Source of the DNA: a virus
IMG/VR virus record: IMGVR_UViG_3300035661_000243
Span: 1-30,903 of that record
Reading direction: 5' to 3' (one strand)
DNA: 30,903 bases
Shown: piece after piece, positions 1,673 to 15,986 of the stretch
How the letters are laid out: every line of letters begins with the position of its first letter
Numbering within the stretch: position 1 is the first letter of the stretch
Notes under the pieces: generated by a model
What the model saw: the letters and a program-made list of their open reading frames with translations, nothing else
Databases searched by the model: none
Told to the model about the DNA's origin: nothing
Program-made: the position numbers and the translations under genes

Positions 1673-2410
1673 ATGATAAACCCTCAATCGTTAACACAAC
1701 AAGAACTTGAAGACCTTGACTATTCTACGCTTAGTAATGAAGAACTTGAAGCCTTCAAGACTTTTGCAAAAAATTGCGCATCACAAGAACAATCCATTAA
1801 ATTAACTATTAATTCTATTTACGGAGCGTTCGGAAATGAATTTTTTCATTTTTACAATTCAGATATTGCTGAAACTATTACACTTCAAGGACAAGAAGCA
1901 ATTAGACATACAGAAAAAATGATTGAAATGTATTTTCATGAAATTTTTCATAAAGATGTTGAACTTCATAGAAAATTAGGAGTACCAGAAGGATTTAAAG
2001 TGCCAAAAATAAAAGGAACTATTTACAAATATGGTGACACGGATAGTGTTGAAAAATCATCTACTGTAATTGATAATATTTTAGGAGAATTGTCAATAGA
2101 AGAGTTTTTTAAATTTTATTCAAAAAATGGCTACACAATAGATTTGAATCAAAATGAAGTTGTAACATTAAATGAAGGTTTTGTAAAAATACTAAATTGG
2201 GATGATAAATTAAAATGGTCGTCAGTAAAACATATCATTAGACACAAAGTCAAAAAACAAAAATGGAAAGTTATATCAAAAAGTGGTAAATTTATTGAAA
2301 TAACAGATGACCATAGTATAATGGTTTTGCGAAATGGTGCAAAAATAAAAATAAAAGCATCTGAAATAGATGTTAAAAATGATTTACTTATTGGTGTAAA
2401 AAAGTTGTAA
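1673..2410 (+). CDS. 43: DNA polymerase gp43, middle fragment fused to N-half of a split intein
   Basis: Residues 1-124 are family B polymerase sequence. Motif B is K-L-T-I-N-S-I-Y-G at 43-51, and motif C begins at 120-124 (Y-G-D-T-D). Residue Ser125 starts a 121-residue N-intein that includes block B (I-T-D-D-H-S-I). The C-half at 3652 begins, after its terminal His-Asn, with S-G-Y-L-S-F. Ligation therefore restores YGDTD-SGYLSF, a complete motif C. The start ATG follows the gp45 stop by one base (TAAAATG). The exonuclease domain and motif A, about 500 residues in T4 gp43, are missing from this ORF. They must lie outside the window, so the polymerase appears to be in at least three pieces. 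The 3' end is followed by an endonuclease gene. Confidence 0.88.
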   Translation: MINPQSLTQQELEDLDYSTLSNEELEAFKTFAKNCASQEQSIKLTINSIYGAFGNEFFHFYNSDIAETITLQGQEAIRHTEKMIEMYFHEIFHKDVELHRKLGVPEGFKVPKIKGTIYKYGDTDSVEKSSTVIDNILGELSIEEFFKFYSKNGYTIDLNQNEVVTLNEGFVKILNWDDKLKWSSVKHIIRHKVKKQKWKVISKSGKFIEITDDHSIMVLRNGAKIKIKASEIDVKNDLLIGVKKL

Positions 2411-2427
2411 ATTTAATCACTTTATTA

Positions 2428-2472
2428 AGTATCTTTGTGATATATAAATAAAACATATAATATGGAGATACT
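2428..2472 (+). promoter_or_regulatory. Inverted repeat flanking a late promoter and covering an endonuclease start codon
   Basis: AGTATCT at 2428-2434 is the exact reverse complement of AGATACT at 2466-2472. G-U and A-U pairs can extend the stem through 2462-2465, which includes the ATG at 2462. The late promoter (2439-2452) lies in the loop. Read-through RNA from upstream would form the stem. RNA started at the late promoter would lack the 5' arm. This matches the logic known for T4 I-TevI, where early transcripts hide the start site. The function is inferred from geometry. Confidence 0.55.
2439..2452 (+). promoter_or_regulatory. T4-type late promoter for the gene 43 endonuclease
   Basis: GATATATAAATAAA contains the T4 late element TATAAATA (2443-2450). 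It matches motifs placed before gp15, gp20 and other virion genes in the window. Predicted initiation is near 2457, only a few bases before the ATG at 2462. Confidence 0.75.
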
Positions 2473-3682
2473 CGATTTAAAGAAATTAATTAAAAAACAA
2501 AAATCAACTAATGATAAAAATATTTATGCTTATATTGACTTAAAATTTTTTCCTAATTCTGCTAAGTGTATTATTTGTAATAATAGTATATTTTATGATG
2601 GTAGTTCATATAAAATAAGCAATTCTACTATTAAAAAAATAGGTAAATCAGATGAACTAACTAAAAAAGTAAATGAAACTACTTATAATTTATGTGTTTG
2701 TGAAAGTTGTTTAATAGATAAATTTCCTTCATATAAATTAAAAACAAAAAATAGAGTATTTAATACACTAAATGATATAACTTGTTTTGCTTTTAATATA
2801 AATGAATCTGATAAGCAAATACAAAGGAAAAAATTAGGTATAACGTTAGAAAATTCTATAAATAGACATGGTGATATTAAAGGTAGAGAAATATATGAAA
2901 ATTATTGTAAATTACAAGCAGAAAAAAATAAATTTGAATATAAAAAATTAAAGTACGGTTGGACAAAATCAGAATTTGATGAATTTAATAAATCAAGAGC
3001 TATAACAGAAAAAAATTTAATAAGTAAATATGGTGATACTGAAGGTAAAATAAGGTTTGAAAATTACAAAGCTAAGCAAGCCTATGTCGGAAATTCAAAA
3101 GATTATTTTATTGAAAAATATGGTTATGTTGAAGGATTAAAGAAATATGCAAATGTTTGTAAACAAAAAGGTATTACATCTAGCAATCTTATTAGATTAT
3201 ATGGTAATGAAATTGGTTTAAAAAAATACAAAGAATTTATAGAAAAAACTACTAGTCATTTATATTCTAATGTGTCTCAAGAGCTTTTTTCTACTTTAGA
3301 TAAATCAATAGAAGAATTAAATTTAACTACATATTATGCAACTAAAAATATGGAATTTGGTAAATATTTAAAATCATTAGGAAAATATGTTAAACTTGAT
3401 TATTTTATAAATGAATTAAATTTATGTATTGAATTCAATGGAGACTTATATCACGCTAATCCAGAAATTTATTCAGCTAACGATAAAGCATTTTTCTTTA
3501 ATAAGAAATTAAAAGCTATTGATATTTGGAAAAATGACTTAGAAAGGTATAAAACTTTAAACGAAGAACATAATATAACAACTATAGTAATTTGGGAATC
3601 AGATTACAATTTAAACAAAACACAAATTATTAATAATCTTAAAGAAAAAATATGGAATTTGACTATGAATTTGAGGAAATAG
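2462..3682 (+). CDS. EDxHD (Vsr-like) homing endonuclease between the gene 43 intein halves
   Basis: This 406-residue protein sits between the two halves of the fractured polymerase gene. The N-terminus has two cysteine pairs (C36/C39, C80/C83) likely to form a zinc site. The middle carries at least four repeats of the type Y-G-(x)2-E-G-(x)3-Y, probably DNA-binding modules. The C-terminal nuclease domain has I-E-F-N-G-D-L-Y-H with E324, D328 and H331, then W-E-S-D at 378-381. This is the signature of the EDxHD family (I-Bth0305I type, Vsr fold). It is expected to cut the uninterrupted gene 43 allele and so spread the insertion. Its last 31 nt overlap the start of the polymerase C-half. It is probably expressed late (promoter and hairpin upstream). 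Confidence 0.85.
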   Translation: MEILDLKKLIKKQKSTNDKNIYAYIDLKFFPNSAKCIICNNSIFYDGSSYKISNSTIKKIGKSDELTKKVNETTYNLCVCESCLIDKFPSYKLKTKNRVFNTLNDITCFAFNINESDKQIQRKKLGITLENSINRHGDIKGREIYENYCKLQAEKNKFEYKKLKYGWTKSEFDEFNKSRAITEKNLISKYGDTEGKIRFENYKAKQAYVGNSKDYFIEKYGYVEGLKKYANVCKQKGITSSNLIRLYGNEIGLKKYKEFIEKTTSHLYSNVSQELFSTLDKSIEELNLTTYYATKNMEFGKYLKSLGKYVKLDYFINELNLCIEFNGDLYHANPEIYSANDKAFFFNKKLKAIDIWKNDLERYKTLNEEHNITTIVIWESDYNLNKTQIINNLKEKIWNLTMNLRK

Positions 3683-4608
3683 AATCAGTTGAATGTTTAG
3701 GAGATTTTGAAGATGAATATGTTTATGATATAGAAATGCACGATGATACGCATACATTTATCGCAAATAATTTATTAGTTCACAATTCTGGTTATCTTTC
3801 TTTTGGTGAAGTTATGGAAGCTGTTAAATGGCAAGGAACTGAAAAAGACTTTGTTATGGCTCTTAATGATTTTAGACTTGCTAAGTTCATTAAAAATGTA
3901 TTAAATGATTTTGCTACTGTTAGAAATACAAATAACTTTTTGGATTTTGAACTTGAAACTATTGCTGAATCAGCAATTTTTGTTGCAAAGAAAAAATATG
4001 TACAAAACATAGTTTGGAAAGATGGCAAAAACTTTGATCCATTAACTTATATTAAAACAACAGGACTTGAAATTGTTCAATCATCATCACCTCCATTTGC
4101 AAGACAAAAGTTGATTGAAGTTATTAAAGTAATATTCAAAAAGAAAACGCTTAAATATGAAGACAATGCAGATTTAGTAAAACTTCTTAAATCAATTAAA
4201 GAAGAATTCAAATTAACAAATCTGGAAAAATTATCTGTTTCTTTTTCAATTTCTGATTATAATAAATACATTTTAAATGATGTTGATAAATTAGAAATTG
4301 CTTCAAAATGTCCAGTTCATGTTAGGGCAGCAGGAAATTTCAATTATCTTGTAAATAAAGCAAACTTAAAAACAAAATATGAATTAATACATACAGGTGA
4401 TAAAATTAAATTTTATTACACAAATGAAAATGCTTGTGATGTATTTGCATTTAAACCAGGTATTTTCCCATCTGAAATAGCTCCAAAAATGGATATTGAT
4501 AAACAATTTGAAAATGTTATAATCAATCCTCTTAATAGAGTTATTGTTGCTGCAGGATTACCTCCGCTAAATCCAGTACTTTCATATTACAAAAATACTC
4601 TTTTTTAA
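3652..4608 (+). CDS. 43: DNA polymerase gp43, C-terminal fragment preceded by C-half of split intein
   Basis: Residues 1-45 are the C-intein: block F (Y-V-Y-D-I-E-M-H-D-D-T-H-T-F-I-A-N) and block G ending L-V-H-N. The extein starts at Ser46 with S-G-Y-L-S-F-G-E-V. The remaining 273 residues align with the T4 gp43 C-terminus: T-G-L-E-I-V-Q-S-S-S-P matches its M-G-M-E-T-Q-Q-S-S-T-P, and C-P-V-H-V-R-A matches C-P-F-H-I-R. The final L-S-Y-Y-K-N-T-L-F resembles a clamp-binding tail. The start overlaps the end of the endonuclease gene in another frame, suggesting translational coupling. Trans-splicing with the 1673 product rebuilds palm motif C and the thumb. Confidence 0.88.
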   Translation: MEFDYEFEEIESVECLGDFEDEYVYDIEMHDDTHTFIANNLLVHNSGYLSFGEVMEAVKWQGTEKDFVMALNDFRLAKFIKNVLNDFATVRNTNNFLDFELETIAESAIFVAKKKYVQNIVWKDGKNFDPLTYIKTTGLEIVQSSSPPFARQKLIEVIKVIFKKKTLKYEDNADLVKLLKSIKEEFKLTNLEKLSVSFSISDYNKYILNDVDKLEIASKCPVHVRAAGNFNYLVNKANLKTKYELIHTGDKIKFYYTNENACDVFAFKPGIFPSEIAPKMDIDKQFENVIINPLNRVIVAAGLPPLNPVLSYYKNTLF

Positions 4609-4624: not shown

Positions 4625-4918
4625 ATGGCAAAGGAATTAAAAACTTTTTCTCTTGATGAAGTAAGAAAAGAATTAAAAACGATTAATCAATTTGGTGGTG
4701 TAATTTCTAGTACTGATTTTACGAAAACGTTAGAATATATTGGTACTGGAAATTATCATTTAAATGCGTTATTTTCAGGAGACTTATTTAAAGGAATTCC
4801 TTGTAATAAAGGGGTTGCTATTGTTGGTGAATCAGGCTGTGTACAAAAAAATCAAAGGATAAAGATATATAAAATAAAATCTAATCCTAATGCAAAACAC
4901 AAAATTATCAATATGTGA
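4625..4918 (+). CDS. uvsX: UvsX recombinase, N-terminal fragment with a 26-residue N-intein
   Basis: Residues 1-71 are the N-terminal part of a RecA/UvsX-type strand-exchange protein, ending in the first half of Walker A (V-A-I-V-G-E-S-G). Cys72 begins the intein (C-V-Q-K-N-Q-R-I-K-I-Y-K-I-K) and the ORF stops after only 26 intein residues. Block B and later parts lie in the downstream piece at 6097, so this is an atypically split intein with a very short N-half. Ligation to T-A-K-T gives G-E-S-G-T-A-K-T, a Walker A variant with Ala before Lys; T4 UvsX also varies there. The 3' end contains a late promoter motif and overlaps the next gene start (4890). Confidence 0.85.
   Translation: MAKELKTFSLDEVRKELKTINQFGGVISSTDFTKTLEYIGTGNYHLNALFSGDLFKGIPCNKGVAIVGESGCVQKNQRIKIYKIKSNPNAKHKIINM
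4864..4879 (+). promoter_or_regulatory. Late promoter inside the uvsX N-intein, for the endonuclease at 4890
   Basis: GATATATAAAATAAAA has one extra A relative to the common motif and is identical to the element before gp21 (24283-24298). It lies within coding sequence, 11 nt before the ATG at 4890. AGGAT (4856-4860) and ATCCT (4884-4888) could form a weak 5-bp stem around it. Confidence 0.55.
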
Positions 4919-6095
4919 TTTATATTTTGAAAACTCTGTTAAAAATAAAACAATACATAAAAAAAATCCTGTAGATATTTTAGAATTTCATAAAAATATA
5001 CAAATAAGTTGTAATTTTTCAGATAATCCTAATTTAACTGTTTTAAAAAATTTATATAAGTTTTATTGTGAAAATTTCCATTTGTATGATAATTATAAAA
5101 AACGTAATTTTGGTAATCCTTATAAACTTTTAAAATTACATCCTAATTGTAGAAATTTAAAGTACTATTTAGATAGAGGATATAGCGAAGAATTTGGATT
5201 ATCAAAAATAAAAAAATTGCAGGCAACTTGTAATATAGAAATAGCAAAAAAAATACAATCAACATTAAAAAATAATCCAAATTTAGATAAAATAAATAAG
5301 TCTAAGGGTAATAGCAATAGATGGGAATTTTATTTAGACAAAATTAATCCTAATACTAATTTGTTATTTACCGAAATAGAAGCAAGAGAAAAAATTTATA
5401 ATAAACAAAGAACTGGATTTGTTAATCTTTGGAAAAATCATAAAAATGGTACCAAAGAAATGTTAACAAACATGCAATTAAAGTATTATTTAAACAAAGG
5501 ACTGGACTTACAAGATGCTAAAAATGCATTAGTAGAAAGAAAGTTACAAGGTGCTTTTACATTAGAAAATTGTATATTAAAATATGGAAAGGAAATAGGA
5601 ACTAATAAATTTATAGAAAGGCAGATTAAATGGAGATCTACAATGAATTCCAAATCCGATGAAGATAAAAACCAAATTAAAATAAAACAAAGGCTAAGAT
5701 TACCTAGAGTATCAAGTGTTTCAATTAAATTATTTGAGTCTATTATTTCTTCTTTAAATTTATGTATTGATGATGTATATTTTAATAACCCTGAATATTT
5801 TATTTATGATGATTTAACAAAACGATTATATTTTTATGATTTTGTTATACCTTCTAAAAAAATAGCAATAGAATACAATGGAACAACATTTCATCCTAAA
5901 CCAGATGCAACCGAAGAAGAAAAATTAACTTGGTTTAACCCATTAAAAAAAATGAATTATTTTGATAATTTAATTTTCGATAATTATAAAAATAATTTAA
6001 TAATTCAAAAAGGATACGATTTGCTTGTTGTATGGGATGATGATCCTTTTAAATTAGAAAAATGCATAGAATTTATAAAAAATAAAATTGTATAA
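4890..6095 (+). CDS. EDxHD-family homing endonuclease between the uvsX intein halves, altered active site
   Basis: This 401-residue protein overlaps the end of uvsX-N by 29 nt and stops one base before uvsX-C. The central part carries the module Y-Y-L-N-K-G-L-D-L-(x)-D-A followed by F-T-L-E-N-C-I-L-K-Y-G-K-E-I-G, shared with the endonucleases in genes 41 and 46 and probably DNA-binding. The C-terminal nuclease domain has Y-D-F and then I-E-Y-N-G-T-T-F-H (E328, H335). The Asp that the other three enzymes have after N-G is Thr332 here. Loss of this residue may reduce or abolish cleavage, or another acidic residue may substitute. The ending L-L-V-V-W-D-D-D is the counterpart of the W-E-(S/I)-D motif in the other three. 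Expression is probably late. Confidence 0.8.
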   Translation: MQNTKLSICDLYFENSVKNKTIHKKNPVDILEFHKNIQISCNFSDNPNLTVLKNLYKFYCENFHLYDNYKKRNFGNPYKLLKLHPNCRNLKYYLDRGYSEEFGLSKIKKLQATCNIEIAKKIQSTLKNNPNLDKINKSKGNSNRWEFYLDKINPNTNLLFTEIEAREKIYNKQRTGFVNLWKNHKNGTKEMLTNMQLKYYLNKGLDLQDAKNALVERKLQGAFTLENCILKYGKEIGTNKFIERQIKWRSTMNSKSDEDKNQIKIKQRLRLPRVSSVSIKLFESIISSLNLCIDDVYFNNPEYFIYDDLTKRLYFYDFVIPSKKIAIEYNGTTFHPKPDATEEEKLTWFNPLKKMNYFDNLIFDNYKNNLIIQKGYDLLVVWDDDPFKLEKCIEFIKNKIV

Positions 6096-6096: not shown

Positions 6097-7569
6097 ATGA
6101 CAAAAAAAGAAAAAATAAAAGAATTGCTAATGTATCCTGAATGGGATATTGAAAAAATTCAAGCTATTGCAAGTGAAGACTTTGACCGTATTTTTGATTT
6201 GCATTGTGAAAAATACAGCGAATTTGTTGAAGCAGGCGATTTAGTTTTAAATTATACAAATTCTAATTTTTTAATAGATACACCAGATGGTTATCAATTG
6301 TTAGGTGACTTTTTTATTAAAAAACCAAGGAAGATTTTTCAATTAGAAACAATTGATAAAAAAATCAAAGTTTCGGAAGATCATTTAATAGAAAGTAGAT
6401 TTAATCTCGATTTTGAATTTACTAAAAATTTAAAAGTTGGTGACTTAATTTTAACTAATACAGGCTATCAAAAGGTAATTAGCAATGTTGAAATTGGGGA
6501 AGAAGAAGTGTATGATTGGGAAGTTTTACATGAAAATCATAGATATTGGTGTGATGGAATATCTTCACATAACACAGCAAAAACTTTTGCAATGTTAAAT
6601 ATAGCAAGAAATGCACAAGAACTTGGTTATTATGTAGTTTATTATGATACTGAAGGTGCTATTGATGTTGACTCTATTAAAGGATTTGATATTGATGGTA
6701 CAAAATTTGATCATCAACCAATGTCAGATTTAGCTAAGTTTAGAACTTCTATTACTACTTTAGTTAAAAAATTAATGGAAGCTAAAGAAAAAGGTTTTCA
6801 AATTCCAAAGATTGCAATTTTCTTAGACTCTTTAGGTATGTTAGCAACTACTAAAGAAATTGATGATGCATTAGGTGGTAATACTGCTGCAGATATGACA
6901 CGTGCTAAGATAATTAGATCATTGTTTCGTATTATTACTTCTGACTTATCTTGTTTAGGTATTCCCATGATTATGTCGAACCATACATACGCGTCAGTTG
7001 GAATTTTTCCTTCTGTTAATATTTCAGGTGGTGGAGGTATTATTTACGCACCTTCTATTATTGTTAATTTATCAAAAGCAAAATTAAAAGATGGGGCTGT
7101 TCAAACAGGCATTATTGTTACTGCAACTGCGTTAAAAAATCGTTATGTTAAACCTCAATCTATTAAACTACATATTAGATGGGATATGGGTATGAATCCT
7201 TATATTGGAATGGAAGAATATATTTCTTGGAATGTTTGTGGAATTCAAAAAGGAAACATACTAACAGCAAAAGAATATGAAAAGCTAAATGATAAAGACA
7301 AAACTTTAGCACAACCTTTTAATGCTAAAACAGGGGAATTAGTGTATTTTACACCTAAAGAAACTGCTCGTAATTTTATTGTTAAACATTTAGGAGAAGG
7401 AATTCCTCCAAGTAAATTGTTTACCGCGGAAGTTTTTAACCAAGAAGTATTAGAAGCCATTAATGAAAAATGCATCAAACCAAGGTTTACTTATGGATTA
7501 GATGATGAAATTACAGATGAATATCTAGATGACTTAATTGATGACTCAGGAGAACTAAATGTTGACTAA
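6097..7569 (+). CDS. uvsX: UvsX recombinase, C-terminal fragment preceded by a long C-intein
   Basis: The ATG at 6097, one base after the endonuclease stop, is preferred over an in-frame TTG at 6088. Residues 1-159 form the C-intein: a helical N-terminal extension, block B (V-S-E-D-H-L-I), block F (V-Y-D-W-E-V-L-H-E-N-H-R-Y-W) and block G ending S-S-H-N. The extein starts at Thr160 (T-A-K-T-F), completing Walker A. Walker B is probably I-A-I-F-L-D-S. The extein ends in an acidic tail (D-D-E-I-T-D-E-Y-L-D-D-L-I-D-D), as is common for UvsX. The spliced product would be about 402 residues against 390 for T4 UvsX. UvsX forms the presynaptic filament for recombination-dependent replication. Confidence 0.88.
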   Translation: MTKKEKIKELLMYPEWDIEKIQAIASEDFDRIFDLHCEKYSEFVEAGDLVLNYTNSNFLIDTPDGYQLLGDFFIKKPRKIFQLETIDKKIKVSEDHLIESRFNLDFEFTKNLKVGDLILTNTGYQKVISNVEIGEEEVYDWEVLHENHRYWCDGISSHNTAKTFAMLNIARNAQELGYYVVYYDTEGAIDVDSIKGFDIDGTKFDHQPMSDLAKFRTSITTLVKKLMEAKEKGFQIPKIAIFLDSLGMLATTKEIDDALGGNTAADMTRAKIIRSLFRIITSDLSCLGIPMIMSNHTYASVGIFPSVNISGGGGIIYAPSIIVNLSKAKLKDGAVQTGIIVTATALKNRYVKPQSIKLHIRWDMGMNPYIGMEEYISWNVCGIQKGNILTAKEYEKLNDKDKTLAQPFNAKTGELVYFTPKETARNFIVKHLGEGIPPSKLFTAEVFNQEVLEAINEKCIKPRFTYGLDDEITDEYLDDLIDDSGELNVD

Positions 7570-7880
7570 TGGATTTGAAAAACTTAAAATTAAAGTACAT
7601 ATTAGGGTCATATAAAAGTGACCCTAATTTTCCAACAATAGAAGATTTTGAATACTTTTATTTAGATTGGATAAGTAGTTCAACACAAATGGCGGCGTTA
7701 GAACAACGAAGGATTAGTGAAAATGATCCAACGGGTCATTTTTTTGTATACAATTTTTTATTGCAATATCTGGATAATGACAAAGAAAAAACCGATAAAC
7801 TTCTTAACACTCTCATAGAGTCCGGTAATGTAGCCCCACCAAGGAAAAAGGTTTATAAAATTTTAAAATTTGATTATTAA
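7569..7880 (+). CDS. Unknown small protein between uvsX and gene 41
   Basis: The product has 103 residues, is soluble-looking and rich in aromatic residues, with no signal peptide or membrane segment. Its ATG overlaps the uvsX-C stop (TAATG), implying translational coupling to uvsX. The position matches T4 gene 40, which lies between uvsX and 41, but I see no sequence evidence for gp40. The gene ends at a strong intrinsic terminator, so it closes the 45-43-uvsX transcription unit. Function not recognised. Confidence 0.75.
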   Translation: MDLKNLKLKYILGSYKSDPNFPTIEDFEYFYLDWISSSTQMAALEQRRISENDPTGHFFVYNFLLQYLDNDKEKTDKLLNTLIESGNVAPPRKKVYKILKFDY

Positions 7881-7968: not shown

Positions 7969-8658
7969 ATGGTTGGTTCTGATGCTTTTGAAAAAATTTT
8001 TTATCTTTATACAAGAGAAAATCCAAAATACTTAAAAAACGTAGTTGAGTCTTTTTATGAAAATAAACAGCTTTCAGTCCTTCATAATATTACAAAACAA
8101 TTTTATGAAAGGTTTAACCAGGTTCCTTCGGTAGCTCAATTAAAAACATTAGCTAATCAAGCACAATTTAAAACCCAAATATCAGAAAGTATTATAAATG
8201 TTGTTTTTGATGAAAAGTTAAGTGACTATGATCCAGATTGGTTGACTGAAACTTGTCAAGCTTGGGTACTATGGAAGTCATTAGATAAATCATTGGTAGA
8301 TACAATTGAATATGTAAAGACTGTTAAAGTAGACCCAAATAATGTAAAGGATGTTATTAACAAAGTAAAAACACTTATTAATGAAAGAAATTCGATATCT
8401 TTTAATACAAATTTAGGTAGTGACTTTTTTAATCCTGAGTCACATATAACTCCTGCTGGTACTAAATTTTCTTCTAATCACAATTGGATAGATTCTTTAT
8501 TAGGCGGATATTCATTAGGAACTTTAGTTGCTTACGCTGGTGAACCCAATATAGGTAAGTGTGCCCATAAAGATACTATTATTAAAATCCGTAATACAAA
8601 AACACTAGAAATTTTAAATATATCTATAGAAAAATTTTACAACTTAGTTAAGAAATAA
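7969..8658 (+). CDS. 41: Replicative helicase gp41, N-terminal fragment with a 32-residue N-intein
   Basis: Residues 1-197 carry the DnaB-type N-terminal domain and linker, then the start of the RecA-like core (L-L-G-G-Y-S-L-G-T-L-V-A-Y-A-G-E-P-N-I-G-K), ending at the Walker A lysine. Cys198 starts the intein (C-A-H-K-D-T-I-I-K-I), which stops after 32 residues with a helix (I-S-I-E-K-F-Y-N-L-V-K-K). Ligation to Ser148 of the 9931 product restores G-E-P-N-I-G-K-S. This is again an atypical split with a short N-half. The gene follows an intrinsic terminator and probably has its own promoter. In T4, gp41 is the hexameric 5'-3' helicase that partners the gp61 primase. Confidence 0.86.
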   Translation: MVGSDAFEKIFYLYTRENPKYLKNVVESFYENKQLSVLHNITKQFYERFNQVPSVAQLKTLANQAQFKTQISESIINVVFDEKLSDYDPDWLTETCQAWVLWKSLDKSLVDTIEYVKTVKVDPNNVKDVINKVKTLINERNSISFNTNLGSDFFNPESHITPAGTKFSSNHNWIDSLLGGYSLGTLVAYAGEPNIGKCAHKDTIIKIRNTKTLEILNISIEKFYNLVKK

Positions 8659-8691
8659 TTGGCTTTTTCCCTATATTTCGTTCACTTGCTT

Positions 8692-8705
8692 AGATATAAA
8701 ATAAA
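8692..8705 (+). promoter_or_regulatory. Late promoter-like element for the gene 41 endonuclease
   Basis: GATATAAAATAAAA lies 4 nt before the ATG at 8710. It is one TA step shorter than the usual GATATATAAATAAA, so a weaker match. Its position mirrors the elements before the other three endonuclease genes. I found only 4-bp pairings around it, not a convincing sequestering hairpin. Confidence 0.5.
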
Positions 8706-8709
8706 ACTT

Positions 8710-9924
8710 ATGGTACTTCAAGATTTATACTGTGATTTTAAATTAAACAAATTACGAAAAAAATATACTAATTGGAAAACTATTCCTGTTTGTTTTACTG
8801 AATTTGTTACTATAGTACAATCTTGTATTTTAAACTTAAATTTAGAAAATCATACATATTTTGAAAATTTATACGAGTCATATTCAACTAAGTATTTTGA
8901 ACTTATAACAAAACAAGACTTTAAAACATACAACACTCGTTTTAGTGCATTTAATTGTTTAGGAATTTATTCGACACATGCACAAAATGAAGCATATTGG
9001 TTGGATAGAGGTTGGAATATCGAGCAAATTAAAGATATTCGTTCTAAAAAGTTTGGAACTTGTTCAATAGATTTTTTACTTAATAAAGGGTTTTCACTAG
9101 AAGATGCAAAAAATAAATTAAAGATTACAACTAATAAAATTCAAGAAAAATCTTTAAAAACAAAAAAAGAAACTGGTAATTTTGGCCGACAAACGGTTGA
9201 AACTTATATTAAAATGGGTTTAACTGAAAATGAAGCTAAACAAAAAATGTTAGAAATTGGCAAAAAACGAAGTGCTGGAATAATAAAATGGAACAAACGA
9301 AACCCAAATTATTTTAAAAATGCTAAAAGACCAAATCAAATACAGTATTGGTTAAATAAAGGATTTTCCGAGGAAGAATCTAAACAATTTGTTAAAGAAC
9401 GTCAAAAAACTTTCACTTTAGAAAAATGTATTGCTAAATATGGAGAAGAATTAGGAATAAAAAAATATAATGATAGAAATTCTAAATGGTCTGCTAAAAT
9501 TGAATCTAAGTATAAAAATGGAGAGTTTTCAAAAAAACCAAAATCGATTAATTCTACTAGAATTTCAAACATTTCAAAAACTGTTATTGATGAATTATTA
9601 AAATTTTATCCAGATGCAATGTGTTATAAAAATGAATTTGAAATTTTCGATGAAGAACGTGGAAAACGGATGGGTTTTGATTTTAAAGTTGGCAAAAAAA
9701 TTATAGAAATTAATGGCGACTTTTGGCACATGAATCCCAGTATATACGACAAAGACTATTTTAATAAACGAACTAAAAAATTTGCTTATGAAAAATGGGA
9801 GATAGATAAGCAAAAAGTTGAATTAGCTAATTCTTATAATTATACAGTTTTGACTATTTGGGAATCAGATTTTAAACAAGATAAAAAACAAGTTATAGAA
9901 AAATGCATAGAATTTTTAAATTAA
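8710..9924 (+). CDS. EDxHD (Vsr-like) homing endonuclease between the gene 41 intein halves
   Basis: The ATG at 8710 (404 residues) is preferred to an in-frame TTG at 8659, because a late promoter motif lies between them. The middle carries Y-W-L-(x)-(K/R)-G-(F/W)-(S/N) modules, including Y-W-L-N-K-G-F-S-E-E-E-S-K, then F-T-L-E-K-C-I-A-K-Y-G-E-E-L-G and a K-W segment. The gene 46 enzyme shares the same order. The catalytic domain has F-D-F then I-I-E-I-N-G-D-F-W-H (E333, D337, H340) and W-E-S-D near the C-terminus, so all EDxHD residues are present. It is predicted to cut an intein-less gene 41 at the Walker A site. Its stop is 6 nt before gp41-C. Confidence 0.87.
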   Translation: MVLQDLYCDFKLNKLRKKYTNWKTIPVCFTEFVTIVQSCILNLNLENHTYFENLYESYSTKYFELITKQDFKTYNTRFSAFNCLGIYSTHAQNEAYWLDRGWNIEQIKDIRSKKFGTCSIDFLLNKGFSLEDAKNKLKITTNKIQEKSLKTKKETGNFGRQTVETYIKMGLTENEAKQKMLEIGKKRSAGIIKWNKRNPNYFKNAKRPNQIQYWLNKGFSEEESKQFVKERQKTFTLEKCIAKYGEELGIKKYNDRNSKWSAKIESKYKNGEFSKKPKSINSTRISNISKTVIDELLKFYPDAMCYKNEFEIFDEERGKRMGFDFKVGKKIIEINGDFWHMNPSIYDKDYFNKRTKKFAYEKWEIDKQKVELANSYNYTVLTIWESDFKQDKKQVIEKCIEFLN

Positions 9925-9930: not shown

Positions 9931-11085
9931 ATGACCGATAATCAATTTAATGAGTTGTTAGAACTTTTTACAAAACCTAATTTAGAAATAAAACCTTCTG
10001 ACTTAGTAGAACATAAATACGAAGACTATTTTGAAATTTATGATTGGGAAATAGAAACCGATAAAGGATGGTCTTCGATTAAAGGAATTGGAAAAACTGT
10101 TCCTTATGAAGTTTGGGAATTGGAAACTAATCAAGGTAAAAAATTAAAGTGTGCCGATACTCATATTGTTTTTAATGAATTGTGGAGGGAAACTTTTGTA
10201 AAAGATTTAAATAATTTTAGTAAAGATCCAAGATATGATAAAATTGTTACAAAAACAGGATTAGATACGGTAGAAAAAGTCTCTAATTTAGGATATTTTG
10301 AAAATATGTATGACATTCAAGTTGATGATGAAAATCATAGATATTGGACAAATGATATACTTTCACACAATTCTATTTTCTTGGCAAACGAAGCAGTAAA
10401 TCACTCAAGAGCTGGGAATAATGTTGCTGTTATAACTGCTGAAATGTCGGAAGTTAATTATAATCAACGTATGGGTGCTAATTTATTAGATATTAAAATA
10501 GAAGATTATGAAAAAATGTCTAAAAAGCAAGATTATATAAAAAATAAGCTTTTGAATATATCAAATGGAATTATTCCACCAGGTCAACTTCATGTTAAAG
10601 AATTTGCAACATCAGCTGCATCAGTCCCGGATGTTGAATTATATTTAAGAGAATTAGAAGTAGCTAAAGGAATAAAATTTCAAGTTATAATAATCGATTA
10701 TATAAATATTTTGATGAATTATCGTAATCCTAATTCAGAAAATACTTATATGAAAATTAAACAAATTGCCGAAGATTTAAGAGCTATGGCAATTAGAAAT
10801 AATTGGTTAGTTATAACTGCAACACAATTTGGAAAACAAGGATGGGACTCTGCTAATGTTAATATGTCGGATATTTCTGAATCTGCAGCACTAGCTCACA
10901 CTGTGGATGTATTGTTAGGAATTATCCAAATACCAGAAATGCAAATTAGAAACGAGTATTGGCTTAAGCTTCTTAAAGTAAGGAATGGTGCAGGGAAGAA
11001 TATGAAGTGTAAATATAATGTTCAATACAGCTATATGAGACTGATAGAAACTGATGAAGTAATAATGGCTGACAATATTGTATAA
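9931..11085 (+). CDS. 41: Replicative helicase gp41, C-terminal fragment preceded by a long C-intein
   Basis: Residues 1-147 are the C-intein: block B (C-A-D-T-H-I-V-F), block F (M-Y-D-I-Q-V-D-D-E-N-H-R-Y-W) and L-S-H-N at the end. Its G-W-S-S-I-K segment aligns with K-W-S-S-V-K of the gene 43 N-intein, showing how far the split point has moved. The extein starts at Ser148 (S-I-F-L-A-N-E-A). It includes V-I-T-A-E-M-S, Walker B V-I-I-I-D-Y, T-A-T-Q and S-D-I-S-E-S-A-A-L-A-H-T-V-D, all typical of DnaB-family helicases. The spliced length is about 434 residues against 475 in T4. Confidence 0.88.
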   Translation: MTDNQFNELLELFTKPNLEIKPSDLVEHKYEDYFEIYDWEIETDKGWSSIKGIGKTVPYEVWELETNQGKKLKCADTHIVFNELWRETFVKDLNNFSKDPRYDKIVTKTGLDTVEKVSNLGYFENMYDIQVDDENHRYWTNDILSHNSIFLANEAVNHSRAGNNVAVITAEMSEVNYNQRMGANLLDIKIEDYEKMSKKQDYIKNKLLNISNGIIPPGQLHVKEFATSAASVPDVELYLRELEVAKGIKFQVIIIDYINILMNYRNPNSENTYMKIKQIAEDLRAMAIRNNWLVITATQFGKQGWDSANVNMSDISESAALAHTVDVLLGIIQIPEMQIRNEYWLKLLKVRNGAGKNMKCKYNVQYSYMRLIETDEVIMADNIV

Positions 11086-11529: not shown

Positions 11530-12615
11530 ATGAAGATAAATGCAAAAAGAGCATTCTTAGTTACTGATTCACATTTTGGTGCTCGATCAAACTCAAATGA
11601 ATGGCTGGAATTGATTTTAGATTACTTTTACAATGATTTTATACCAAGGGTTAAAGCAGAATATCGAGAAGGAGACATACTTATTCATTGTGGGGACTTT
11701 TTTGACAATAGACAATCGATTAATTTGTCAGTATTGCACGAATCCATAAAATTAATGGAAATTTTTTCATCTATTTTTAAGGATGGAGTTTACGTACTAG
11801 CAGGTAATCATGACATTTTTCGAAAGACTTCTAACGAAATAACTTCGTTAGATTCTTTTAAATATATACCAAGAGTTACTATTGTTAAAGAAACTCTTAT
11901 ACTTGAATTAGAGAACAAGAATTTGATGCTTATGCCTTGGCAAACTTCTGCTGCTGATGAAATAGCAGAAATACAAAAATTTGATTCTTTTAAACCTGAA
12001 TACTTGTTTTGTCATACAGATATTAAAACATTTGATTTTGATAAATCCAGAAAAATAGAAGAAGGATTGGAGCTTAAACATTTAGTCAAATTCAAAAAAG
12101 TTTATACGGGTCATATACACACTGCGCAAAAGCATAAAAATGTAGTCGTTTTAGGCAATTCATACCAAATGACTAGGTCTGATGCAAATAATAAAAAAGG
12201 ATTTTATTTAATTGATTTTCAAACAGATAAAGAAAAATTTTTTGAAAATAAAAGATCACCTAAATTTATAAGAGTTTATTTGCATAAGTATTTAGATAAT
12301 ACAATAGAAGAATTAATGGCTGTTTGTAAAAATAACAAAGTAGATTTGTACATTGATTCTGTTTTGTTGAAATATCAAATTCAAATAGCGCAAATAATTG
12401 ACATTTTAAGTAAAGTTGCTATTAAACTAGAAATTATTCCATTCGAGTCAAATGGTGAAGTTGGATTAGATGATGAAAAACTTGAACAAAATTTTAATAT
12501 TTTAGGATTATGTGAACGTTATGTTAAATCGTTAACATATACAGATGATGTTAAAACTAAATTAATTGATAGAATTGAATCTATGTACAATTCTATTTTA
12601 AAAGAAATGAGATGA
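11530..12615 (+). CDS. 47: Recombination nuclease subunit gp47 (SbcD/Mre11-like)
   Basis: The 361 residues contain the full calcineurin-like phosphoesterase motif set: D-S-H (13-15), G-D-F-F-D (55-59), G-N-H-D (92-95), a C-H-T-D histidine (162) and G-H-I-H (194-197). These residues bind the two metal ions of Mre11-type nucleases. The length fits T4 gp47 (339). The gene lies directly upstream of gene 46, its partner ATPase, as in T4. The gp46/gp47 complex resects DNA ends to make single strands for UvsX. Unlike its neighbours it is uninterrupted; it has no P-loop. Confidence 0.93.
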   Translation: MKINAKRAFLVTDSHFGARSNSNEWLELILDYFYNDFIPRVKAEYREGDILIHCGDFFDNRQSINLSVLHESIKLMEIFSSIFKDGVYVLAGNHDIFRKTSNEITSLDSFKYIPRVTIVKETLILELENKNLMLMPWQTSAADEIAEIQKFDSFKPEYLFCHTDIKTFDFDKSRKIEEGLELKHLVKFKKVYTGHIHTAQKHKNVVVLGNSYQMTRSDANNKKGFYLIDFQTDKEKFFENKRSPKFIRVYLHKYLDNTIEELMAVCKNNKVDLYIDSVLLKYQIQIAQIIDILSKVAIKLEIIPFESNGEVGLDDEKLEQNFNILGLCERYVKSLTYTDDVKTKLIDRIESMYNSILKEMR

Positions 12616-12665: not shown

Positions 12666-12875
12666 ATGAGAATTTTGAACTTACGTTTCAAAAATTTTAA
12701 TAGCTATGGCAATGTAGAACAAGAACTTAACTTCGACACAAAAGAAGGTATGTTATATTTATTACACGGACAATCAGGTATTGGTAAATGTCTAGACCCT
12801 AGTACAAAATTAGAAATTAATATAAAAGATGATATAGTAAGAAAACAATTTTTAGAATTTCTAAAAAATAAATAA
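12666..12875 (+). CDS. 46: Recombination ATPase gp46 (SbcC/Rad50-like), N-terminal fragment with a 28-residue N-intein
   Basis: Residues 1-41 are the N-terminal strand region of an SMC/Rad50-type ATPase (L-R-F-K-N-F-N-S-Y-G), ending in L-L-H-G-Q-S-G-I-G-K. Cys42 starts the intein (C-L-D-P-S-T-K-L-E-I-N-I), and the ORF ends after 28 intein residues in a helix (F-L-E-F-L-K-N-K). The break is at the same Walker A position as in gene 41, between Lys and Ser. Ligation gives G-Q-S-G-I-G-K-S-T. The ORF is only 69 codons, so it could be missed by gene callers. Confidence 0.86.
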   Translation: MRILNLRFKNFNSYGNVEQELNFDTKEGMLYLLHGQSGIGKCLDPSTKLEINIKDDIVRKQFLEFLKNK

Positions 12876-12937: not shown

Positions 12938-14062
12938 ATGAAAACTGACTTAGCAAAGTTAAAAAATAGGAATTTATTAGAAATTGATTTTTTTAAAAAA
13001 TGGAATTCTGTAAAATTATTTGATACTATAGAAAAATTAGGATTATCGGTAGATGAAATTCCTACTTATATTTTAATAAAAACATTAAGTAATTATATTA
13101 AATCTGAAAATAATGGAAAACAACCTTCGTCACTAAATACTGAATACTATACATTAAGAGGACATTCTATTGAATATGCAAAAAAGGTAATAAGTGACTT
13201 GCAAAAAAATAATTCTGATAAACTGATAAAAAAACGTTTAATTAATCCAGAAAGGTACAAGTCTAATGGAGGTCCGATTTGTTTAAAATACTGGAAAGCG
13301 AAAGGATTTTCTACAGAAGATTCTGCTATAAAGCAATTAGAAAATTCACCAAATAGTATTTACTATTATATCAAAAAAGGATTTTCTAAGGAAGAATCTA
13401 TTTTAAAGGTTTCTGAATTTCAACGAAAACAAGCTTTAAAATTTTCTAAGAAAAGAAAGGAAAATCCAGAAAAATATATTGCCACGTTGCCAACTCAACT
13501 AAATTACTGGATTAAAAAAGGGCTTTCAATAGAAGAAGCTAAACAAAAATTAAAAGAACGTCAATCAACATTTACTCTTGAAAAATGTATTGAAAAACTA
13601 GGAATTATTGAAGGAACAAAAAAATATAATAATAGGCAGGAAAAATGGATTAAATCATTACATAAAAATTTTAATGAACAAGGTGACAGTAGGTCTCCTT
13701 CTTCTAAATTTGCTAATGAAATAATTGCATTAATTTGTAAAGAATTAAACATAGAAATTCCTAAAAAAGAAAAATGGATTAGTTCACATGATGGTAAATT
13801 GCGATGTTCCTATGATTTTACATATAATAATAAGATAATAGAATTTAATGGTGACTATTGGCATGCTAATCCATTAATGCATAAATCAACTGATGTTATA
13901 AGAGGTTTGAAAATAACAGCCAAAGAAAAATGGGACATGGATAATTTAAAAATAGAATTAGCTAAAATAAATGGATATGATGTTCTTACTATTTGGGAAA
14001 TCGATTATAATGAAAACAAAGAAAATACTTTACAAAAATGCTTAAATTACTTAAAAAATTAA
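12938..14062 (+). CDS. EDxHD (Vsr-like) homing endonuclease between the gene 46 intein halves
   Basis: This 374-residue protein sits between gp46-N and gp46-C. Repeated modules of the form Y-(Y/W)-I-K-K-G-(F/L)-S-(x)-E-E precede R-Q-S-T-F-T-L-E-K-C-I-E-K-L-G, nearly identical to the gene 41 enzyme. The nuclease domain has Y-D-F, then I-I-E-F-N-G-D-Y-W-H (E302, D306, H309) and W-E-I-D near the end, so all catalytic residues are present. The predicted target is the uninterrupted Walker A region of gene 46. Its stop lies 7 nt before gp46-C. Expression is probably late, with early translation blocked by the upstream hairpin. Confidence 0.87.
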   Translation: MKTDLAKLKNRNLLEIDFFKKWNSVKLFDTIEKLGLSVDEIPTYILIKTLSNYIKSENNGKQPSSLNTEYYTLRGHSIEYAKKVISDLQKNNSDKLIKKRLINPERYKSNGGPICLKYWKAKGFSTEDSAIKQLENSPNSIYYYIKKGFSKEESILKVSEFQRKQALKFSKKRKENPEKYIATLPTQLNYWIKKGLSIEEAKQKLKERQSTFTLEKCIEKLGIIEGTKKYNNRQEKWIKSLHKNFNEQGDSRSPSSKFANEIIALICKELNIEIPKKEKWISSHDGKLRCSYDFTYNNKIIEFNGDYWHANPLMHKSTDVIRGLKITAKEKWDMDNLKIELAKINGYDVLTIWEIDYNENKENTLQKCLNYLKN

Positions 14063-14069
14063 AATTAAA

Positions 14070-15986
14070 ATGATAAATTGTACATTAGGAGATTTGTTGG
14101 AATTTGAAAAATTGACAAATGCAATATCTAATAATAAAATAGAGGTTAATACAAGAATTGGATTAAAACATGTTGAAGCTATTGCAATAACTGCAAAAAA
14201 TAGTAAATGTATAAAAATATCAACAAAAAATAAATCAATAATAGGTTCGCCGGATCATTTATTATTTTATAAAAATTGGAAAAAAATAAAAGATTTTAAA
14301 GTAGGTGATAGTATTGAAACTATAGATGGCATAGAAATAATAACAAGTATTGAATTATTAAATGAAACTAAAGATTTATTAGATATACAAGTTTCAGATG
14401 TAAAAGAATTTTATGCTAATGGATTTGTATCCCACAATTCAACTATTGCAGAAGCTATTATATATGCTATGTATGGTCGTATTGAAAAGAAAAAGAAAAC
14501 TGACTTACCTAATAGAATTAACAAAAATCTTCAATGCAAAATACATCTTTTATCTAAAAATAAAAGTGTAGAAATTACAAGAGGTATTGCTCCCACATTT
14601 CTAAAAGTAGAAATTGATGGAATTGAGTATGATACGGCAGGTAACAATAACGTGCAAGATTATCTTGACAATGAAATTTTCGACATTCCTTATCACGTTT
14701 TCAAGAATATAGTTGTTCTTTCTATAAATGACTTTCGTTCATTTTTAACAATGACGCCTCTTGATAAAAGAAATATTATTGATAGGTTGTTTGGATTTTC
14801 TGTAATTAATGAAATGAAGGACCAAATAAAAAATGAAAGAAAAGAAATAAAAGAAAAACTTAAAACAATTTATGACGAGTTAAATATCATTGATTCGACG
14901 ATAATTTCTATAACAGATCGAATTAAAAAATTAGAAAATTTTAAAAAAAATGATAAAAATAAGCTAATTGCTGATTACAAAACCAAAATTCAAGAATTGT
15001 TAAACTCTAAAAAATTAGTAGATGAAGACTATGCTAAATTGACTCAATTAGAGACTAAGGTAACAGAATTATTGGAAAACAAAAAACAATCATTAGGTAA
15101 TTTACACCATGAACTAAAAACAATTAAAGAAAAAATTAGATTATATCAAAATGACACTTGTCCTACATGTGGAGCACCTTTAACAACAGATTCACATGTT
15201 CATAATAAACAAACATTAGAACAACAATTAGGAGAAAAGGAATTTATTGTAAATGAAGTAAAAAATGAGCTATTAGAATTAGATAAAAAAATAAAAGCTA
15301 TAGCAATAAAAGTAAAAGAACAATATGGTATTTCTACAAAATCATCTATTTTAATAACTCAATACAGAGAAGAAGCGGAAAAAATAGTTAATGAAGATAA
15401 AGAAACTGATAAAAACAGTCTTAATGAATTATTAGACGAAAATACAGTTAAAATAAGCGACAGGAAAGTTAAACAAACAGAGTATTTAACGGAAGATTCT
15501 TTCTTGGAAATTCTTGAATACATTTTAGGCGATGATGGTGTTAAGAATTTAGCAATGAAAACTATACTACCTACTCTTAATCAAAATATTAATATGATGA
15601 TTAATCAAGTTCACTTACCTTATGTTATTAAATTTGATGATAAGTTTGACTGTGTAATTACTTCAATCGGTGAACAAATAAATCCATTAAGCATGTCAAC
15701 TGGCGAAAGGAAACGTGCCGACTTTATTATTATTATTGCATTACTTAAAATTTTAAAAATTCAATATCCTACACTTAATTTACTTTTCCTTGATGAGATT
15801 TTCTCTTCTGTTGATGCAGCAGGTGTATATGAAATAATAAAAATTCTTCAAGAAATTACTAAAGAATATGAATTGAATACTTGGGTAATAAATCATAGCG
15901 AATTGCCTATGGAACTTTTTGATAAAAGAGTTGAAATTATTAAAGTTGGTGGTTTTAGCCAATTGCAAAAAGAAGCTATTCAATAA
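14070..15986 (+). CDS. 46: Recombination ATPase gp46, C-terminal fragment preceded by a long C-intein
   Basis: Residues 1-123 are the C-intein: block B (S-P-D-H-L-L-F), block F (L-L-D-I-Q-V-S-D-V-K-E-F-Y-A-N-G) and V-S-H-N. The extein starts at Ser124 with S-T-I-A-E-A-I-I-Y-A-M-Y-G, completing Walker A. It continues through long coiled-coil arms around a zinc hook C-P-T-C (about residues 364-367), the ABC signature S-M-S-T-G-E-R-K-R-A, Walker B N-L-L-F-L-D-E-I-F-S and the H-loop N-H-S-E. The spliced length is about 556 residues against 560 in T4 gp46. It partners gp47, encoded just upstream. This is the last gene of the replication block. Confidence 0.92.
   Translation: MINCTLGDLLEFEKLTNAISNNKIEVNTRIGLKHVEAIAITAKNSKCIKISTKNKSIIGSPDHLLFYKNWKKIKDFKVGDSIETIDGIEIITSIELLNETKDLLDIQVSDVKEFYANGFVSHNSTIAEAIIYAMYGRIEKKKKTDLPNRINKNLQCKIHLLSKNKSVEITRGIAPTFLKVEIDGIEYDTAGNNNVQDYLDNEIFDIPYHVFKNIVVLSINDFRSFLTMTPLDKRNIIDRLFGFSVINEMKDQIKNERKEIKEKLKTIYDELNIIDSTIISITDRIKKLENFKKNDKNKLIADYKTKIQELLNSKKLVDEDYAKLTQLETKVTELLENKKQSLGNLHHELKTIKEKIRLYQNDTCPTCGAPLTTDSHVHNKQTLEQQLGEKEFIVNEVKNELLELDKKIKAIAIKVKEQYGISTKSSILITQYREEAEKIVNEDKETDKNSLNELLDENTVKISDRKVKQTEYLTEDSFLEILEYILGDDGVKNLAMKTILPTLNQNINMMINQVHLPYVIKFDDKFDCVITSIGEQINPLSMSTGERKRADFIIIIALLKILKIQYPTLNLLFLDEIFSSVDAAGVYEIIKILQEITKEYELNTWVINHSELPMELFDKRVEIIKVGGFSQLQKEAIQ

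What the first reader, a model, noticed from the sequence alone, without database searches (positions are those of the whole stretch)
1673..15986. Four essential replication genes fractured side by side by split inteins with nested endonuclease genes
Genes 43, uvsX, 41 and 46 are each cut in two at an intein, with a separate EDxHD-type endonuclease gene between the halves. In all four, joining the sequence before the intein's first Cys/Ser to the sequence after the terminal His-Asn restores an unbroken conserved motif. The single arrangement (fractured gene plus Vsr-like endonuclease) is known from metagenomic work. Four in about 14 kb means replication of this phage depends on at least four orthogonal trans-splicing reactions in the same cell.
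Basis: partly seen in the sequence, partly recalled or inferred. Interest (0 to 1): 0.93.

Follow-up and report, generated by a model that had tools for sequence, protein, structure and literature searches.

The report
Phage replication genes split by inteins
A large uncultured phage encodes its DNA polymerase, recombinase, helicase and repair ATPase as separate halves that must apparently be stitched together by self-splicing protein tags, each half-pair wrapped around a selfish DNA-cutting gene; the same set of genes is broken in at least two other phages, and near-identical phages differ in which genes are broken.

Summary
In the window, polymerase 43, uvsX, 41 and 46 are each two ORFs. Each N-half ends in an N-intein, each C-half begins with a C-intein ending His-Asn, and a Vsr/EDxHD-like endonuclease ORF lies between. 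Joined exteins run without gap into intact homologues for three genes; for 43 motif C is restored. The record is a fragment. A 94-kb contig of the same phage has three more split genes, seven in all, and no intact copies were found in it.

The unit is known ("fractured genes"). New, as far as I could search: (1) concerted fracture: of 69 record clusters with all four genes visible, 64 have none split and 3 have all four, on separate branches; (2) two phages 99.3-99.8% identical differ by clean presence or absence of whole cassettes in 41 and 43; (3) a series at gp46: empty, contiguous mini-intein, split without and with endonuclease; (4) the endonuclease seems to have moved between helicase and terminase genes without the intein (trees support, tests inconclusive).

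"Orthogonal" is not supported: helicase and terminase inteins are kin. Gene 43 also lacks its N-terminal part, a separate gene in relatives. Splicing itself is untested.

The parts
1673..2410 (+). gene 43 (family-B DNA polymerase, palm part only) N-half: extein 1673-2044 ending YGDTD, then Ser1 N-intein 2045-2407 (121 aa)
   Evidence: PF00136 48.3 bits, PF14890 29.3 bits (below its cut-off)
2462..3682 (+). EDxHD/Vsr-like homing endonuclease gene of the 43 cassette
   Evidence: phrog_22677 E 4.6e-61; in alignment A1, whose best PDB match is I-Bth0305I
3652..4608 (+). gene 43 C-half: C-intein 3652-3786 (45 aa, ends VHN), extein from Ser+1 at 3787
   Evidence: TIGR01443 19.7 bits, cut-off 15.6
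4625..4918 (+). uvsX N-half: extein 4625-4837 ending VGESG (Walker A), N-intein 4838-4915 (26 aa, Cys1)
   Evidence: phrog_97 E 1.6e-6
4890..6095 (+). EDxHD/Vsr-like homing endonuclease gene of the uvsX cassette
   Evidence: phrog_22677 E 6.9e-13
6097..7569 (+). uvsX C-half: C-intein 6097-6573 (159 aa, ends SHN), extein from Thr+1 at 6574
   Evidence: phrog_97 E 1.1e-38; AF2 model of 6097-6573, Foldseek top hit VidaL intein E 3.5e-9
7969..8658 (+). gene 41 helicase N-half: extein 7969-8559 ending GEPNIGK (Walker A), N-intein 8560-8655 (32 aa, Cys1)
   Evidence: phrog_19 E 0.0044
8659..9924 (+). EDxHD/Vsr-like homing endonuclease gene of the 41 cassette (listed TTG start follows the stop directly; true start may be later)
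   Evidence: phrog_22677 E 2.8e-13; AF2 model residues 300-421 match Vsr 1cw0 Z 11.2 (rmsd 2.8, 110 aligned) and I-Bth0305I 3r3p Z 11.0 (rmsd 3.3, 92 aligned)
9931..11085 (+). gene 41 helicase C-half: C-intein 9931-10371 (147 aa, ends SHN), extein from Ser+1 at 10372
   Evidence: PF03796, phrog_19 E 3.2e-41; TIGR01443 16.8 bits, cut-off 15.6
12666..12875 (+). gene 46 N-half: extein 12666-12788 ending GQSGIGK (Walker A), N-intein 12789-12872 (28 aa, Cys1)
12938..14062 (+). EDxHD/Vsr-like homing endonuclease gene of the 46 cassette
   Evidence: phrog_22677 E 3.2e-14
14070..15986 (+). gene 46 C-half: C-intein 14070-14438 (123 aa, ends SHN), extein from Ser+1 at 14439
   Evidence: phrog_77 E 4.2e-66; joined intein PF14890 36.9 bits, cut-off 35.8
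11530..12615 (+). gene 47, unfractured neighbour in the same operon (control)
   Evidence: phrog_100 E 2.2e-62
925..1671 (+). sliding-clamp-like gene (45 by position and synteny), unfractured neighbour
   Evidence: no Pfam or PHROGs match; collinear homologue in relatives; name inferred

Best explanation
Each of the four loci carries one mobile cassette: N-intein, stop, free-standing Vsr/EDxHD-type homing endonuclease gene, start, C-intein. The endonuclease most likely cuts the empty allele inside a conserved catalytic-site stretch (Walker A in uvsX, 41 and 46; polymerase motif C in 43), and recombination copies the whole cassette in. The two gene halves are then translated separately; N- and C-inteins associate, form one HINT fold, and ligate the exteins in trans, which keeps the essential enzyme active, so the break is tolerated. 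Repeated homing, plus exchange of the endonuclease module between sites, has filled most of the replication operon and other genes of this phage (seven split genes in 94 kb). Shown by sequence: cassette anatomy, continuity of joined exteins, conserved intein catalytic residues, intein and Vsr folds, empty alleles, and in a relative the clean presence or absence of the whole cassette between near-identical phages. Inferred: cleavage, splicing in trans, dependence of replication on it, and the endonuclease exchange.
For: Anatomy and junctions. Joined inteins match PF14890 above the curated cut-off for pol (46.3 bits) and gp46 (36.9); gp41 (21.5) is below it and uvsX has no match. A profile of 32 P-loop C-inteins (A3; H, D and terminal H-N invariant) best matches the gp41-1 (E 9e-16), VidaL (1.1e-15) and Cat (7.6e-14) inteins in PDB; the model of the weakest case, the uvsX C-intein, matches VidaL. 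Endonucleases: the four PDB matches to profile A1 at E up to 1 are I-Bth0305I and three Vsr entries, E 0.004-0.09; fold Z 11 to both. Intact syntenic alleles: LR756500.1 for uvsX, 41, 46 and four collinear sister phages for all four genes. Whole-cassette polymorphism: L222 is 99.3-99.8% identical to L194/L221 but has empty gp41 and pol sites; inserts 1,881 and 1,718 nt; the 442 nt just 3' of the pol insert hold 20 of all 65 differences, 19 at the third codon position, as after gene conversion from a diverged donor. Unsplit gp46 mini-intein at the same site in L223/L224.
Against: No splicing, cleavage or ligated protein was measured. The phage genome is incomplete (94 kb held; related records reach 462-735 kb), so intact second copies cannot be excluded. 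The joined uvsX intein has no Pfam match at E 0.01, and its C-half none in NCBIfam. The endonuclease match is weak by sequence, weaker with a larger alignment (3r3p E 0.078); Foldseek alone gave no match below E 0.001, and in the VIA list a mitoribosomal protein scores Z 9.5, not far below Vsr. The L194/L222 difference could be precise loss rather than gain, and was seen in a relative, not in this phage; the gp41 insert shows no such flanking tract, and the 442-nt stretch was picked after looking.
Confidence: 0.87

Rival explanations
1. The halves are not spliced: the enzymes assemble from two polypeptides without ligation, as the separately encoded N- and C-parts of this phage group's DNA polymerase presumably do, and the inteins are decaying remnants.
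For: The polymerase is already two genes in relatives, so non-covalent assembly is possible for at least one enzyme.
Against: The cuts fall inside Walker A or motif C, where a break with 26-159 aa of intein at the ends should destroy the active site (inference); intein catalytic residues are conserved in 32 of 32 aligned C-inteins (H, D, HN); in L009, where the endonuclease is gone from pol, 41 and 46, the intein halves keep similar boundaries (gp46 N-intein ends EFIKNK against EFLKNK here).
Confidence: 0.06
2. The broken genes are non-functional in a defective or degraded phage, with intact copies elsewhere or helper functions from another phage.
For: Only 94 kb of the genome is held, so copies elsewhere cannot be excluded.
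Against: All halves are open, with 4 amino-acid differences over the 12 ORFs between two records; no second copies in 94 kb; extein identity to four unfractured sisters (50-69%) is not lower overall than that of the unfractured neighbours gp45 and gp47 (51-58%); the same four-gene state recurs in two other phages.
Confidence: 0.05
3. Assembly artefact or stop-codon recoding makes continuous inteins look split.
For: In gene 41 the three ORFs lie in one frame separated only by TAA stops and six bases; Lak phages recode TAG (recalled).
Against: TAA ends 28 of 34 ORFs; in 43, uvsX and 46 the halves or the endonuclease are in different frames, and in L194 the pol insert is 1,718 nt, not a multiple of three; a second, non-identical record has the same stops.
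Confidence: 0.01

Closest known systems
Fractured genes with split inteins and EDxHD/Vsr-like endonucleases (Dassa et al. 2009, NAR 37:2560; paper not held; content recalled, title seen in reference lists)
   Same: Conserved enzyme gene interrupted by a split intein with a free-standing Vsr-like endonuclease gene between the halves; overlapping target genes (recalled).
   Different: Four adjacent fractured genes in one operon and seven in one 94-kb phage contig; recurrence of the four-gene state in other phages; cassette-plus/minus near-identical phages; likely endonuclease exchange between genes. Whether any of this is in that paper I could not check.
Tenacibaculum phages PTm1/PTm5 DNA polymerase (AP019524, AP019525)
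   Same: Polymerase fractured with a VSR endonuclease between, C-half junction HN|S at the same place, and the exonuclease part as a separate gene.
   Different: One phrog_22677 match at E 0.001 in each whole genome against six in 94 kb here.
VidaL / AceL-TerL / GOS-TerL / Cat atypical split inteins
   Same: Short N-intein (25-37 aa for AceL-, Cat- and GOS-TerL in the review passages; VidaL recalled) and long C-intein; best PDB and fold matches.
   Different: Here in uvsX, 41 and 46 (N-inteins 26, 32, 28 aa) of one genome; terL has a 51-aa N-intein.
gp41-1 / gp41-8 / NrdJ-1 / IMPDH-1 metagenomic split inteins
   Same: Same homologous family for the C-intein (gp41-1 6qaz E 9e-16).
   Different: Those used as tools come from separate metagenomic loci (recalled); here several co-occur in one phage.
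Intron- and intein-rich crAss-like and Jug phages (PMC7886860, PMC12363816; passages read)
   Same: Many essential genes fragmented in one phage (up to 14 introns and 3 inteins in a crAss-like genome). Jug phage nrdD and DNA polymerase genes are split around stand-alone endonuclease or 'Intein_splicing' genes, which may include the same kind of split intein.
   Different: [quoted passage not shown] 'trans-splic' does not occur in the Jug paper's main text, and I did not examine those genomes.

Membership tests
Fractured gene (Dassa-type; definition recalled) | Conserved gene cut in two inside a conserved motif by intein halves | tested here: met
   4 of 4 loci in the window
Fractured gene (Dassa-type; definition recalled) | Free-standing endonuclease gene between the halves | tested here: met
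   4 of 4 in the window; 6 of 7 in the 94-kb contig, the KxDG gene having none
Fractured gene (Dassa-type; definition recalled) | Endonuclease of the EDxHD / Vsr-like family | tested here: met
   Invariant S, D, I-E, G, H, W in 12 rows; PDB profile hits I-Bth0305I and Vsr; fold Z 11. Sequence match alone is weak; EDxHD residues were not mapped one by one
Fractured gene (Dassa-type; definition recalled) | Protein trans-splicing of the halves | not testable with these tools
   needs co-expression
Class 1 split intein | Cys/Ser1, block B His, block F Asp, terminal His-Asn, Cys/Ser/Thr+1 | tested here: met
   by reading at 4 of 4 window loci; H, D, HN invariant in 32 P-loop C-inteins
Class 1 split intein | HINT fold | tested here: met
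   uvsX C-intein model (pLDDT 78.5, 32 sequences) best match VidaL E 3.5e-9, TM 0.65/0.71; other loci by profile only
Atypical short-IntN split intein (VidaL/AceL-like) | N-intein about 25-37 aa | tested here: met
   uvsX 26, gp41 32, gp46 28 aa; not met by pol (121) and topo (102), which are canonical, or terL (51)
Mutually orthogonal split-intein set | No cross-reaction between non-cognate halves | not testable with these tools
   gp41 and terL C-inteins 40% identical over 133 aa; net charge does not separate pol, uvsX and gp41 pairs
Homing cassette | Empty alleles and precise insertion of the whole unit | tested here: met
   in relatives: L194/L221 against L222; unsplit alleles of all four genes in four sisters of this phage
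Homing cassette | Endonuclease cuts the empty site | not testable with these tools
   needs a cleavage assay

The most novel reading that the evidence does not exclude
A lineage of Vsr-type nucleases that targets catalytic-site codons, above all Walker A P-loops, breaks whole sets of essential phage genes in concert. The nuclease gene hops between P-loop genes of one genome (helicase and terminase here) while each split intein stays with its gene; when the nuclease decays the split intein remains as a ratchet. The end state is a phage whose replication depends on a network of simultaneous protein trans-splicing reactions, in one relative including a UvsX made from three polypeptides with a 13-residue middle extein.
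Probability: 0.45. Interest if true: 0.85.

Novelty: new variant of a known kind. Interest (0 to 1): 0.74.

Why it matters
It would be a natural phage whose core replication, recombination, packaging and topology enzymes all pass through trans-splicing at once, so specificity between co-resident split inteins, usually an engineering question, becomes a question about a living system. The near-identical plus/minus phages and the graded series at gp46 (empty, contiguous, split, split plus endonuclease) allow the origin of split inteins to be tested directly. New atypical split inteins with 26-32 aa N-fragments are also candidate labelling tools.

Tried and rejected
Recoding or read-through as the cause of the splits: rejected (stop usage and frames). 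Assembly artefact: rejected (second record). First reading rows L019, L031-L033, L040, L054, L056 as intein-bearing gp41: wrong, they are whole genes. Similarity of the DNA target sites as the reason for endonuclease exchange: no clear excess for gp41/terL (17 of 48 bases; gp46/topo 25 of 48). Endonuclease exchange: careful trees support it, but the AU tests do not reject the alternatives (HEN gp41 with L007 gp41 p 0.41; HEN of 7 gp41 rows p 0.196; HEN of 21 terL rows p 0.111; intein gp41+terL p 0.065; three intein tests unfinished). A sister pair of gp41/gp46 endonucleases in L116 (87) did not hold and is dropped. Faster evolution of fractured exteins: not seen against gp45/gp47. Near DNA matches of 1673-15986 in the phage collection: none. 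Paper searches: (28 papers; 0; 2; 18; 2; 2; 9; 6; 16), 121 (0); no title or abstract start listed describes several fractured genes in one phage operon; the library holds open licences only.

Rows dropped: one search uses 71 endonucleases, leaving out scores under 100, unlabelled loci and duplicates; labels come from the flanking half, some from the upstream half only, one (L113) set by hand. One search covered the records of 50 of the 80 loci; one search covered 35 records. The census uses the best 80 of 378 and best 80 of 457 (three already held, one of them this phage again and left out) loci from queries that contain an intein, plus L194, so it is enriched for split genes; genes with only one side aligned were not counted as split. 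The extein trees use 40 and 37 hand-picked rows.
Full report
What is there. The window is the whole of a 30,903-base IMG/VR record. Between 1673 and 15986 four genes of a T4-like replication operon are each encoded as two ORFs on the + strand: family-B DNA polymerase (43), UvsX, DnaB-like helicase (41) and SbcC/gp46. Gene 45 (named by position), gene 47 and two small ORFs in the same operon show no break. In each broken gene the N-half ends with an N-intein and a stop, an endonuclease ORF follows, and the C-half starts with a C-intein that ends in His-Asn before Ser or Thr. Intein lengths N/C are pol 121/45, uvsX 26/159, 41 32/147, 46 28/123. The three P-loop genes are cut inside Walker A and have short atypical N-inteins; pol is cut in motif C (GDTD|S) and has a canonical split.

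Is it real. Joined exteins of uvsX, 41 and 46 align without a gap over the junction with intact ORFs of the huge phage LR756500.1; in four collinear sister phages a single stop-free alignment spans the junction of all four genes; Pfam domain scores rise on joining. A second record of the same phage, 94,163 b, differs at 25 positions and keeps the stops of all 12 ORFs. Stops are ordinary: TAA 28, TGA 3, TAG 3 of 34.

The inteins. Joined pol and gp46 inteins pass the PF14890 cut-off; gp41 does not and uvsX has no match at E 0.01. A profile of 32 P-loop C-inteins from IMG/VR loci and this window has an invariant His (block B), Asp and terminal His-Asn, and in PDB best matches gp41-1 (9e-16), VidaL (1.1e-15) and Cat (7.6e-14). 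gp41-1 and Cat splice in trans according to review passages; VidaL from recall. The AlphaFold2 model of the uvsX C-intein (mean pLDDT 78.5) is nearest to VidaL (E 3.5e-9) among PDB structures.

The endonucleases. All four match phrog_22677. Twelve members share invariant S, D, I-E, G, H, W. Their profile's only PDB matches at E up to 1 are the catalytic domain of I-Bth0305I (E 0.0039) and three Vsr entries (0.06-0.09); a larger alignment gave 3r3p at 0.078. In the model of the 41 endonuclease (pLDDT 76.2, pTM 0.37) residues 300-421 match Vsr at Z 11.2 and I-Bth0305I at Z 11.0; a putative endonuclease (3hrl, 10.0) and a mitoribosomal protein (9.5) follow. Plain Foldseek ranked I-Bth0305I and Vsr first but with E 0.06 or more.

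More in the same phage. A phrog_22677 search of the 94-kb contig finds six endonucleases: the four here, one in the terminase (named by motif and position; N-half L091 10933-11478, C-half 7771-9654, GK|C...HN|T) and one in a type II topoisomerase subunit (N-half L091 1161-1703, C-half L090 17877-19121). A C-intein profile finds a seventh split gene without endonuclease (L089 13960-15180 and 15245-15772), cut after the Lys of a K-T-D-G motif, which suggests, from recalled motif knowledge, a ligase or nucleotidyltransferase; no family other than the intein matched its C-half. No intact copies of uvsX, 41, 46 or the 43 C-part occur in the 94 kb, and the exonuclease part of the polymerase is not found there. 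In PTm1, PTm5, MA9V-2, LR756500 and G037 that part is a separate gene, so this polymerase is presumably made from three polypeptides.

How common. Two scans from gp41 and gp46 queries, plus L194, gave 158 loci, 88 clusters of near-identical records. In 69 clusters all four genes were seen: 64 have none split, 1 has one, 1 has three (uvsX, 41, 46 in L008), and 3 have all four: this phage, L009 (IMGVR_UViG_3300036670_000250) and L194/L221 (IMGVR_UViG_3300036668_000307; its cluster also holds L222, which has only two split). The queries contain inteins, so split genes are over-represented, yet the nearly all-or-none shape is striking. In trees of the gp46 and gp41 exteins (40 and 37 picked rows, quick method) the three lie on separate branches, each also holding unfractured relatives; starred branches force at least 3 and 4 changes. 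For gp41 the split label is no more clustered than in shuffles (169 of 500 as low). UvsX is cut at a different place in the other two.

The cassette as a mobile unit. L222 (IMGVR_UViG_3300041586_000098) is 99.3-99.8% identical to L194/L221 but has empty 41 and pol sites. The inserts are 1,881 and 1,718 nt, each the whole N-intein, endonuclease and C-intein. Of 65 differences in 16,411 aligned bases, 20 lie in the 442 bases just 3' of the pol insert (binomial p 4e-16 for a stretch chosen after looking), 19 at the third codon position. That is what co-conversion during homing leaves (established knowledge of homing). The 41 insert shows no such tract. Direction, gain or loss, is not proven.

From contiguous to split. 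At the gp46 site relatives show every stage: empty (LR756500); a contiguous in-frame mini-intein whose ends match these halves (L224); split without endonuclease (L009); split with endonuclease (this phage, L007, L116). In L009 uvsX is cut twice; the middle polypeptide is C-intein, 13 extein residues, N-intein, and a short ORF beside it looks by eye like an endonuclease remnant (not searched). I read this as a ratchet: the endonuclease can be lost, the split cannot easily be.

Endonuclease and intein can part. In a careful tree of 21 P-loop loci the 41 and terL endonucleases of this phage are sisters (100/99), apart from five other 41 endonucleases (100/99); a sixth (L116) lies with gp46 and terL ones; none of 200 bootstrap trees unites the 41 endonucleases. 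The inteins instead follow their genes: terL inteins on one side in 86% of bootstraps, and this phage's 41 C-intein is 57% identical to that of L007. AU tests do not settle it. The uvsX cassette here is nearest, by path, to a PhoH-like P-loop cassette of LR756500 in both endonuclease and intein trees, which points to transfer between genes.

Not shown and partly doubtful: the four P-loop inteins of this phage (with terL) are homologous and the 41 and terL C-inteins are 40% identical. Net charges of N- and C-inteins have the same sign pattern in pol, uvsX and 41. Cross-splicing needs an assay.

Known or new. Single fractured genes are known from Dassa et al. 2009 (recalled; not held) and the pol case is annotated in PTm1/PTm5. 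Inteins favour P-loops, as passages of PMC5050341 state. Intein- and intron-rich phages are reported in PMC7886860 and PMC12363816 (passages); the split nrdD and polymerase genes of Jug phages, with stand-alone Intein_splicing or endonuclease genes between fragments, may be of the same kind. Three-segment trans-splicing appears as an engineered scheme in PMC12707363 (search listing only). The listings of ten paper searches showed no report of several fractured genes in one replication operon, of cassette plus/minus near-identical phages or of endonuclease exchange between split inteins, in a library that lacks most subscription papers. I file it as a new variant of a known kind.

Noticed in passing
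L009 6380-8831 (IMGVR_UViG_3300036670_000250): uvsX encoded as three polypeptides by two split inteins; the middle one carries only 13 extein residues between a C-intein and an N-intein.
   Followed up: partly
L094, L095, L096, L003 (LR756500.1): This 462-kb huge phage has at least five genes that read as fractured: pol (with a different kind of endonuclease, not searched), RNR, two topoisomerase subunits (gp52- and gp39-like) and a PhoH-like gene at its P-loop; names by resemblance. The gp39-like gene is whole in the window's phage.
   Followed up: partly
window 2-814: C-terminal part of a TnpB-like protein (TIGR01766 31.0 bits, cut-off 32) just upstream of gene 45 and pol; in Chryseobacterium phage MA9V-2 a TnpB gene directly precedes the intact pol C-part.
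   Followed up: partly
window 29223-29718: Two overlapping ORFs just after the major capsid gene, the second matching homing-endonuclease families phrog_12131/phrog_3339: likely a decayed endonuclease.
   Followed up: no
window 30741-30903: Perfect 36-bp tandem repeat, 4.5 copies, encoding DEEPKGTTGPNK units, running to the record end.
   Followed up: no
window 13774-13803: Nine of the 25 differences between the two records of this phage fall in 30 bp of the gp46 endonuclease gene, as if from a small conversion tract.
   Followed up: no
L193 14706-17759 (IMGVR_UViG_3300036668_000307): A gene that reads as ribonucleotide reductase, split by an intein with an HNH-like ORF between (not family-searched), besides the four operon genes and the KxDG gene: at least six split genes in 43 kb.
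   Followed up: partly
L223/L224 (gp46): Contiguous, unsplit mini-intein at the same gp46 Walker A site.
   Followed up: partly
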